Shown one piece after another: positions 51 through 51,712 of a DNA stretch of 64,000 nt (the stretch's first letter is position 1; every line of letters starts with the position of its first letter). Source of the DNA: Planctomycetia bacterium (lineage in GTDB: Bacteria; Planctomycetota; Phycisphaerae; Phycisphaerales; SM1A02). The notes under the pieces are model-generated. The model was not told the DNA's origin. It ran no database searches and saw only the letters and a list, made by a program, of their open reading frames with translations. The stretch covers positions 62,001 to 126,000 of the forward strand of contig SXUI01000017.1 of assembly GCA_005790605.1 (NCBI GenBank), given 5' to 3'. The translations under genes and the position numbers were made by a program.

Positions 51-611
51 ATGCGAACATCCATCATTGCCCTCTCGGCCGTTGCCCTCTTCTCACTCGG
101 CGCAACCATCGCCTCTGCGCCTCCGTCGCTGAAGTTCACATCCATGGGATTCTCGATCGCGCCAATCATCGCCACTGAAGACGCAACGGAATTCATCCCG
201 CTCACCATGTCACTCCCCGCGACTGAAGACGGTTTCACGCCGAGCGTCAGTGTGCTCATCCAACCCTGGGAGCAGACAATGGAGGAGTACCGAGAGCAAT
301 CGATCCGACAACTGAAGGATGCGGGTTGGACCGTGCTCGGAGAGGGTTTCACGGCGAACACTGAGGGCGGGACCGATGACGCGAAGGCGCTCGTCCTCGA
401 GTACGAGGGTGGCGAGGGCGACGCACTCGTGCACTATTACGCGAAGGCTAAAGCGCGACGAGGCAACATCGTGCTTGCGACAGCGAGCGCCTCCGCGCTC
501 GCATGGAAACAACATGCCGTGACGCTGAAGACATGCGTCGACAGTCTCACCGTCGATGGCGCGCGCAAGCCGACAACTCCACCAGCAGCGGCGAAACCAG
601 CCAAGCCGTGA
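51..611 (+). CDS. Secreted PsbP/DcrB-like hypothetical protein
   Basis: A 186-residue protein. It starts with a clear signal peptide (MRTSIIALSAVALFSLGATI, cleavage probably near Ala22-Ser23) and ends in a low-complexity Pro/Ala/Lys tail. The middle has the rhythm of the PsbP/DcrB (DUF1795) fold: an N-terminal GFSIAPI strand, a helix around EEYREQSIRQLKDAGW, an ALVLEYEG strand and a late W-K-Q-H helix leading to VDSLTV. No catalytic residues are recognisable. The stop codon overlaps the GTG of the next gene in a GTGA junction, so the two are probably translationally coupled. Function is unknown; an exported substrate- or lipid-binding role would fit the fold but is a guess. Confidence 0.75.
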   Translation: MRTSIIALSAVALFSLGATIASAPPSLKFTSMGFSIAPIIATEDATEFIPLTMSLPATEDGFTPSVSVLIQPWEQTMEEYREQSIRQLKDAGWTVLGEGFTANTEGGTDDAKALVLEYEGGEGDALVHYYAKAKARRGNIVLATASASALAWKQHAVTLKTCVDSLTVDGARKPTTPPAAAKPAKP

Positions 612-1531: not shown

Positions 1532-1580
1532 CCTATTTCGAACCGATTCCGAAGGATCCTTTGCTTCAGATACAACCGAG

Positions 1581-1736
1581 GGTAGACTCCGTCCGGAGGT
1601 CGACCAAGGGGTCCGACATCGTTTACGGTTGCCGCAGCAGGCAACACCTGGCTTCCCGGCTAGGAAAGGGCGTAAGCGATGTGGATTGCCGTCTTCGGGC
1701 GGTGCTTGGCGGCACAGCGTTAGGGAGGGTCCGGTC
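1581..1736 (+). ncRNA. Candidate structured RNA / leader of the 46-aa ORF
   Basis: Several helices can be drawn directly. Hairpin one spans 1581-1605 (GGTAGAC..TCC against GGA..GTCGACC with one mismatch and one bulge). A 12-bp helix pairs 1616-1627 with 1671-1682 (one G-U). It encloses a perfect 6-bp hairpin, 1628-1633 with 1640-1645, loop GCAGCA. A third hairpin at 1688-1703 has a UUCG tetraloop. A Shine-Dalgarno and a small ORF follow, then an intrinsic terminator. I could not match it to tmRNA, 6S, RNase P, SRP RNA or a riboswitch class I know. Cis-leader versus independent RNA cannot be decided here. Confidence 0.5.
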
Positions 1737-1877
1737 ATGTCCAGCAATGCGTTCGCCTCGGCGGGCAAACGGGATAGCCGCATTCCGGCGACCGTCCGCG
1801 AATCGTCACCCAGTAGCGAAAGTGCTGCGCTCGCAGACGCAGCCAGGATTGTGCTTCAAGCAATCATCGGTCGCTAA
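1737..1877 (+). CDS. Small ORF, 46 aa, unknown function
   Basis: ATG at 1737 is preceded by AGGGAGGG with 7 nt spacing, one of the best Shine-Dalgarno sequences in the window. The 46-residue product begins MSSNAFASAGKRDS, is rich in Ser and Ala, and ends in a predicted amphipathic helix (ALADAARIVLQAIIGR). It has no signal peptide or Cys. It lies between the structured element at 1581-1736 and a terminator at 1910-1946, so it would be the only coding part of that transcript. It could be a leader peptide, a regulatory target of the RNA, or a chance ORF. Confidence 0.45.
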   Translation: MSSNAFASAGKRDSRIPATVRESSPSSESAALADAARIVLQAIIGR

Positions 1878-1909
1878 GAAGTCTTGATCATCAAACGGAG
1901 GGGAAATCG

Positions 1910-1946
1910 ACAGCCGTGCGCGAATGCGAACGGCTGTTGCTTTTTT
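1910..1946 (+). terminator. Intrinsic terminator after the 46-aa ORF
   Basis: ACAGCCGT at 1910-1917 pairs perfectly with ACGGCTGT at 1930-1937, with a 12-nt loop and a TGCTTTTTT tail ending at 1946. It would end a transcript carrying the mutarotase and/or the structured RNA and small ORF. Confidence 0.85.
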
Positions 1947-2041
1947 GGCTTGCAGAAGTCCCCCTCGCGCGCACACTCGACAAACCCTCGATGCGAATAC
2001 TGAGTCCTAAGCCGCCGCGCAACCAACAACGCGCCAAACGC

Positions 2042-51639: not shown

Positions 51640-51712
<73 letters not shown>

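What the first reader, a model, noticed from the sequence alone, without database searches (positions are those of the whole stretch)
1581..1946. Structured RNA, small ORF and terminator as a self-contained unit
A 12-bp long-range helix (1616-1627 with 1671-1682) encloses a perfect 6-bp hairpin, and two more hairpins flank it, one with a UUCG tetraloop. Then come a strong Shine-Dalgarno, a 46-codon ORF and a perfect 8-bp intrinsic terminator. This order is what a riboswitch-like leader controlling a small peptide, or an independent RNA with a peptide, would show. I could not assign it to any RNA class I know.
Basis: partly seen in the sequence, partly recalled or inferred. Interest (0 to 1): 0.75.

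Follow-up and report, generated by a model that had tools for sequence, protein, structure and literature searches.

The report
Orphan structured RNA leading tiny peptide
A small free-standing gene in one bacterial genus carries a conserved, folded RNA in front of a tiny conserved protein; neither matches the RNA-family library (Rfam) or the protein-family library (Pfam) searched here, so it looks like a real but unnamed RNA-controlled small-protein gene.

Summary
A candidate promoter (1561-1588), a folded 5' region (about 1595-1713), a Shine-Dalgarno, a 46-codon ORF (1737-1877) and an intrinsic terminator (1908-1946) form one unit. The same unit, in the same place, is in all four held genomes of the genus, although flanking proteins there are only 58-80% identical. 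The 12-bp helix is not unusual by chance alone (9% of pieces of this window have one as long); the case rests on comparison. All four leaders fold alike (z about -4.1 to -4.5), 97% of pairs are kept, six pairs change on both sides, and a model built from three members finds the fourth at 74 bits. The ORF is real too: its last 21-22 codons are under purifying selection and end in a conserved predicted helix; its N-terminus is free to vary. Rfam and Pfam have nothing, and no copy was found outside the genus in the family, order and class genomes searched. It is not tmRNA, which lies elsewhere in the genome. Most likely it is a cis-regulatory leader, riboswitch-like or protein-bound, controlling translation of the small protein. 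A dual-function sRNA is the main rival. Ligand, partner and even expression are untested.

The parts
1561..1588 (+). candidate promoter: -35 TTGCTT (1561-1566), -10 TAGACT (1583-1588), 16-nt spacer
   Evidence: TTGCTTC invariant in four genomes, with TAGACT/CAAACT/CACACT/CATAAT 16-17 nt on; the same TAGACT hexamer lies upstream of the tmRNA genes of G000, G002 and G003. The consensus scan did not call it.
1595..1713 (+). conserved structured leader RNA, probably starting near +1
   Evidence: CM from three members finds the fourth at 74 bits; covariation; z -4.1 to -4.5 in all four
1599..1608 (+). P1 5' strand, pairs with 1705-1713; closes the whole domain
   Evidence: 94% of cells paired, one pair changed on both sides
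1610..1627 (+).
   Evidence: 17 pairs, 97% of cells paired, two pairs changed on both sides
1628..1645 (+). P3 hairpin (1628-1633/1640-1645), largely conserved loop
1647..1664 (+). P4 hairpin (1647-1652/1659-1664), variable loop
1665..1670 (+). J4/2 joining strand AAAGGG, invariant in all four; with A1646 it forms the conserved core of the three-way junction. Could also act as SD of a 14-codon upstream ORF
1688..1703 (+). P5 hairpin with UUCG loop (loop not conserved)
   Evidence: two pairs changed on both sides
1679..1723 (+). possible upstream ORF MWIAVFGRCLAAQR, start inside P2, stop inside the SD of the small ORF
   Evidence: start (ATG/GTG) and SD spacing kept in four genomes, stop lost in G003; weak
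1721..1729 (+). Shine-Dalgarno TAGGGAGGG of the small ORF
   Evidence: purine-rich SD kept just before the start in all four
1737..1877 (+). 46-codon small ORF, MSSNAFASAGKRDSRIPATVRESSPSSESAALADAARIVLQAIIGR; conserved C-terminal helix
   Evidence: pS 0.59 against pN 0.26, 3 of 2000 column shuffles as low; single-sequence AF2 helix 25-44 with pLDDT near 90
1908..1946 (+). intrinsic terminator, stem 1908-1917/1930-1939, T6
   Evidence: z -4.1; stem-loops in the same place in the other three (z -4.2 to -9.0)

Best explanation
A free-standing gene for a small protein (26-51 aa) whose whole 5' UTR, from about +1, is a compact five-helix RNA that regulates it in cis. Proposed steps: RNA polymerase starts near 1595. 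The nascent RNA folds P2-P3-P4 around the conserved junction A1646/AAAGGG (1665-1670), which is the likely binding site for a metabolite, ion or protein. Binding stabilises the marginal outer helix P1, and so sets how open the Shine-Dalgarno just downstream is. The ribosome then makes, or does not make, the small protein, and transcription ends at 1946. Shown here: the conserved fold, the conserved ORF with SD and terminator, single copy, shared genomic place. Inferred: that the promoter works, that regulation is in cis, that P1 is the switch, and that anything binds. The small protein probably works through its conserved C-terminal amphipathic helix, docking on a partner; this is inference.
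For: The RNA ends about 20-25 nt before the start codon and lies directly upstream of the ORF in 4 of 4 genomes. No terminator or promoter was seen between RNA and ORF. Covariation and the held-out test (the structure adds 12 bits over sequence alone). Invariant unpaired bases cluster in the three-way junction and the P3 loop, as in a binding site. P1 is the helix that competes with pairings of the SD: its probability is 0.00-0.11 in G000 and G002 but 0.88-1.0 in G003 and G001.
Against: The alternative pairing that would hide the SD is not the same in the four genomes. A riboswitch class limited to one genus and to a gene of unknown role would be unusual, and no ligand can be guessed from the gene. 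Four sequences are few for covariation. Expression is untested.
Confidence: 0.55

Rival explanations
1. Dual-function small RNA: the folded 5' domain acts in trans (base pairing or protein binding), and the same transcript also encodes the small protein, as SgrS/SgrT or VcdRP do.
For: Self-contained unit of about 350 nt with its own candidate promoter and terminator and no other gene inside. The RNA is conserved at 68-87% where the flanking genes are near saturation at silent sites. A 29-aa protein in such an RNA is on record (PMC8672173).
Against: The conserved bases are mostly locked in helices. The largest conserved single-stranded run is AAAGGG in the junction, a poor seed. No target search was possible.
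Confidence: 0.25
2. Leader-peptide attenuator: the small ORF and the terminator at 1908-1946 control read-through into the arylsulfotransferase/dockerin gene downstream.
For: Terminator and downstream gene follow in the same order in all four genomes; the peptide's C-terminus is conserved, as in arrest peptides.
Against: A second conserved promoter-like block, TTGCGNNTGTCCCCC, lies after the terminator, before that gene. No conserved antiterminator pairing seen. Silent sites of the ORF core are free to change.
Confidence: 0.08
3. Type I toxin mRNA: a small helix peptide with a translation-blocking 5' structure, kept silent by an antisense RNA.
For: Short ORF, strongly folded 5' UTR, C-terminal amphipathic helix (muH 0.45-0.51).
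Against: The helix is only about 17-20 residues with charged ends and a mean hydrophobicity of 0.23-0.35, no membrane span. No antisense promoter called. Single copy, fixed place, slow evolution.
Confidence: 0.05
4. Translational coupling: an upstream 14-codon ORF (1679-1723), started from the junction SD GGAAAGGG, is the regulated frame, and its translation opens the SD of the small ORF.
For: SD, start codon (ATG/GTG) and 8-nt spacing are kept in four genomes; the stop falls inside the next SD in three.
Against: The stop is lost in G003. The peptide is not conserved after MWI. UAG occurs naturally in UAGGGAGG. The start codon is locked in P2.
Confidence: 0.07

Closest known systems
Orphan riboswitch candidates / structured 5' leaders (e.g. 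the motif collection of PMC2864571)
   Same: compact multi-helix RNA with an invariant junction directly upstream of an SD and ORF; covarying helices
   Different: regulated gene is a peptide of unknown role; limited to one genus; no conserved expression platform identified; ligand unknown
Dual-function sRNAs (SgrS/SgrT; VcdRP/VcdP, PMC8672173)
   Same: short free-standing transcript with a small protein and an intrinsic terminator
   Different: the structure lies 5' of the ORF and ends near its SD; no evidence of target pairing
tmRNA (RF00023)
   Same: structured RNA with a short reading frame
   Different: no tRNA-like domain, normal SD and start codon; the tmRNA is elsewhere in the genome
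6S RNA (RF00013)
   Same: free-standing RNA of a few hundred bases with a long helix
   Different: encodes a conserved protein; three-way junction instead of one helix with a central bubble; no Rfam match

Membership tests
any Rfam 15 family | score at or above the gathering cut-off | tested here: not met
   only a tRNA at 51640 in the window; best chance-level hits E >= 1 at 1400-2100
tmRNA | match to RF00023 at this locus | tested here: not met
   genomic tmRNA at G000:C75:117048-117398, 126.6 bits; no match here
6S RNA | match to RF00013 | tested here: not met
   no match here or anywhere in the four genomes; the model also misses 8 of 14 controls
riboswitch / cis-regulatory leader | conserved structured RNA with covariation in the 5' UTR of a coding gene | tested here: met
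riboswitch / cis-regulatory leader | conserved alternative structure that controls SD or terminator | tested here: inconclusive
   P1 competes with SD pairing in two of four genomes only
riboswitch / cis-regulatory leader | ligand binding changes expression | not testable with these tools
   needs in-line probing and reporter assays
dual-function sRNA | independent promoter and terminator | tested here: inconclusive
   stem-loops after the ORF in all four; conserved promoter-like block of the right spacing but not called by the consensus scan; no TSS data
dual-function sRNA | conserved translated small protein | tested here: met
   purifying selection on the C-terminal codons; translation itself not shown
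dual-function sRNA | base pairing with mRNA targets in trans | not tested
   no target search was made
known protein family (Pfam) | match of the small protein | tested here: not met
   no family at E <= 5 for any of the four

The most novel reading that the evidence does not exclude
A new riboswitch class: a three-way-junction aptamer with an invariant AAAGGG strand that sits at the very 5' end of a transcript and whose only gene is a small helical protein, so that ligand sensing and the effector are packed into a transcript of about 350 nt.
Probability: 0.3. Interest if true: 0.7.

Novelty: new member of a known kind. Interest (0 to 1): 0.5.

Why it matters
An RNA family and a protein family found together and in neither Rfam nor Pfam make a pair small enough to be tested whole. 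If the RNA senses something, the unit is a minimal sensor-plus-effector gene. If it acts in trans, it is a dual-function sRNA in a bacterial group that, to my knowledge, has few described. It also shows that structured RNAs confined to one genus are easily missed by family libraries.

Tried and rejected
Rfam at gathering and at E <= 10: nothing. Homologues outside the genus: covariance model on 181 family, 400 order and 397 class genomes, a more sensitive run on 40 relatives, the model with filters off on 22 loci beside family epimerase genes, a peptide profile on 181 genomes, an exact-core pattern in 84,980 species genomes (40 hits, none fits the model) and in viral contigs, phages and plasmids: none. 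The best outsider (G210, 24.6 bits) lies inside an ABC-transporter-like ORF and was dropped. A first alignment with two loci in the wrong orientation was redone. A first dN/dS run on the small ORF had the window copy one base out of frame and was redone. Reading the leader as coding in the small-ORF frame: rejected, because that frame shifts against the RNA between genomes. RNA from the minus strand: rejected, since 31 of 172 pair cells are G-U on the + strand and would be A-C on the other (counted by hand). A common rRNA-like origin (the GGGCGUAA run resembles 16S rRNA, from memory): no second match in the genome.

Full report
What is there. The window is part of contig C76 of a 3.03-Mb, 80-contig genome. 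Between an aldose-epimerase-like gene (PF01263) and an arylsulfotransferase/dockerin gene (PF05935, PF00404) lies an intergenic stretch of about 500 bases that holds, in order, a promoter-like block, a folded RNA, a Shine-Dalgarno, a 46-codon ORF and a terminator.

Single-sequence evidence. It is weak, as one should expect. The 12-bp helix, with one G-U pair, is equalled or beaten in 16 of 174 pieces of this window, and 1581-1740 folds at z = -1.9. The trimmed domain 1595-1719 gives z = -4.1. Infernal finds no Rfam family.

Comparative evidence for the RNA. All three other genomes of the genus carry it, once each, in the same gene order. These genomes are far apart: the epimerase is 58-63% identical in amino acids and silent sites are near saturation (pS 0.63-0.74), while the RNA core stays 68-87% identical. 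Each of the four folds into closely the same five-helix form with z of -4.1 to -4.5. On the alignment 97.1% of pair cells are standard pairs, six pairs have a change on both sides against 2.3 in shuffles, and none of 500 shuffles reaches the observed values of these measures; sliding the partners by one to three columns drops pairing to 30-48%. That sliding control is flattered because the structure came from the same consensus. The cleaner test is held out: a model from three members finds the fourth, the most diverged, at 74.1 bits, while chance places score under 19. Sequence alone gives 62.0 bits, so structure contributes but sequence carries most of it. Four sequences are too few for a formal covariation test.

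Anatomy of the RNA. P1 (1599-1608/1705-1713) closes the domain. P3 and P4 sit on its inner end as a three-way junction, and P5 follows P2 inside P1. Invariant unpaired bases include A1646, the strand AAAGGG 1665-1670, and three bases of the P3 loop; the loops of P4 and P5 vary. That is the pattern of a binding site in the junction, by inference.

The small protein. All four genomes have an ORF right after a Shine-Dalgarno. Length varies from 26 to 51 residues because the N-terminus varies, but the end is conserved: E-x-x-A-[LIM]-x-D-A-A-[RK]-I-[VL]-x-Q-A-[LI]. In the last 21-22 codons pS is 0.59 and pN 0.26, a ratio reached by 3 of 2000 column shuffles. A single-sequence AlphaFold2 model gives a helix at 25-44 with pLDDT around 90 and a loose N-terminus. 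No Pfam family matches, and the profile finds nothing convincing in 181 family genomes.

Ends of the unit. The -35-like TTGCTTC is invariant in four genomes, and a hexamer of the form nAnACT, or CATAAT, follows at 16-17 nt. The tmRNA genes of G000, G002 and G003 have TAGACT upstream, the same hexamer as here, and TTGC...TAGACT at this spacing occurs once in the window, exactly here (0.12 expected). The consensus scan needs 9 of 12 matches and did not report it, so the promoter remains inferred. Stem-loops follow the ORF in all four genomes, with different sequences; the T tract is good in G000 and G002, shorter in G003 and weak in G001.

How it probably works. The RNA fills the 5' UTR and ends about 20-25 nt before the start codon, which favours control in cis. 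P1 is the helix most easily lost: with the SD included, it is nearly absent in G000 and G002 and formed in G003 and G001. A P1 switch over the SD is therefore plausible, but the competing pairing differs between genomes, so this is not shown. In G001 and G002 the conserved UGUGGA can also pair with the bases in front of the start codon; in G000 and G003 that pairing is weak. A 14-codon upstream ORF from the junction SD keeps its start in all four genomes but loses its stop in G003.

Range. With models and patterns nothing was found outside the genus. The wide searches use strict filters and the genome sets are samples, so a very diverged relative may be missed; one as close as G002 should have been seen, judging by its 74 bits held out.

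Verdict. This is an undescribed structured RNA and small-protein gene as far as the libraries searched here show, new as a family but of a known kind.

Noticed in passing
window 1950-1978: Second conserved block TTGCGNNTGTCCCCC after the terminator in all four genomes, followed in G000 by an ACACT-like hexamer: probable promoter of the arylsulfotransferase/dockerin gene; the TGTCCCCC in its spacer may be an operator.
   Followed up: partly
L134, L135, L136 (tmRNA upstream regions): TAGACT hexamer upstream of the tmRNA genes of this genus, the same as the -10 of the unit; may be the housekeeping -10 form here.
   Followed up: partly
G000-G003: No 6S RNA is found by RF00013 in any of the four genomes; the model also misses 8 of 14 controls, so absence is not shown.
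   Followed up: partly
G001: tmRNA not found in this 94% complete genome though present in the other three; probably an assembly gap.
   Followed up: no
window 51-611: Small secreted-looking protein gene next to the epimerase, no Pfam match; no copy beside the epimerase genes fetched from other genera.
   Followed up: partly
window 1679-1723: Possible 14-codon ORF MWIAVFGRCLAAQR whose SD is the invariant junction strand and whose stop overlaps the next SD.
   Followed up: partly
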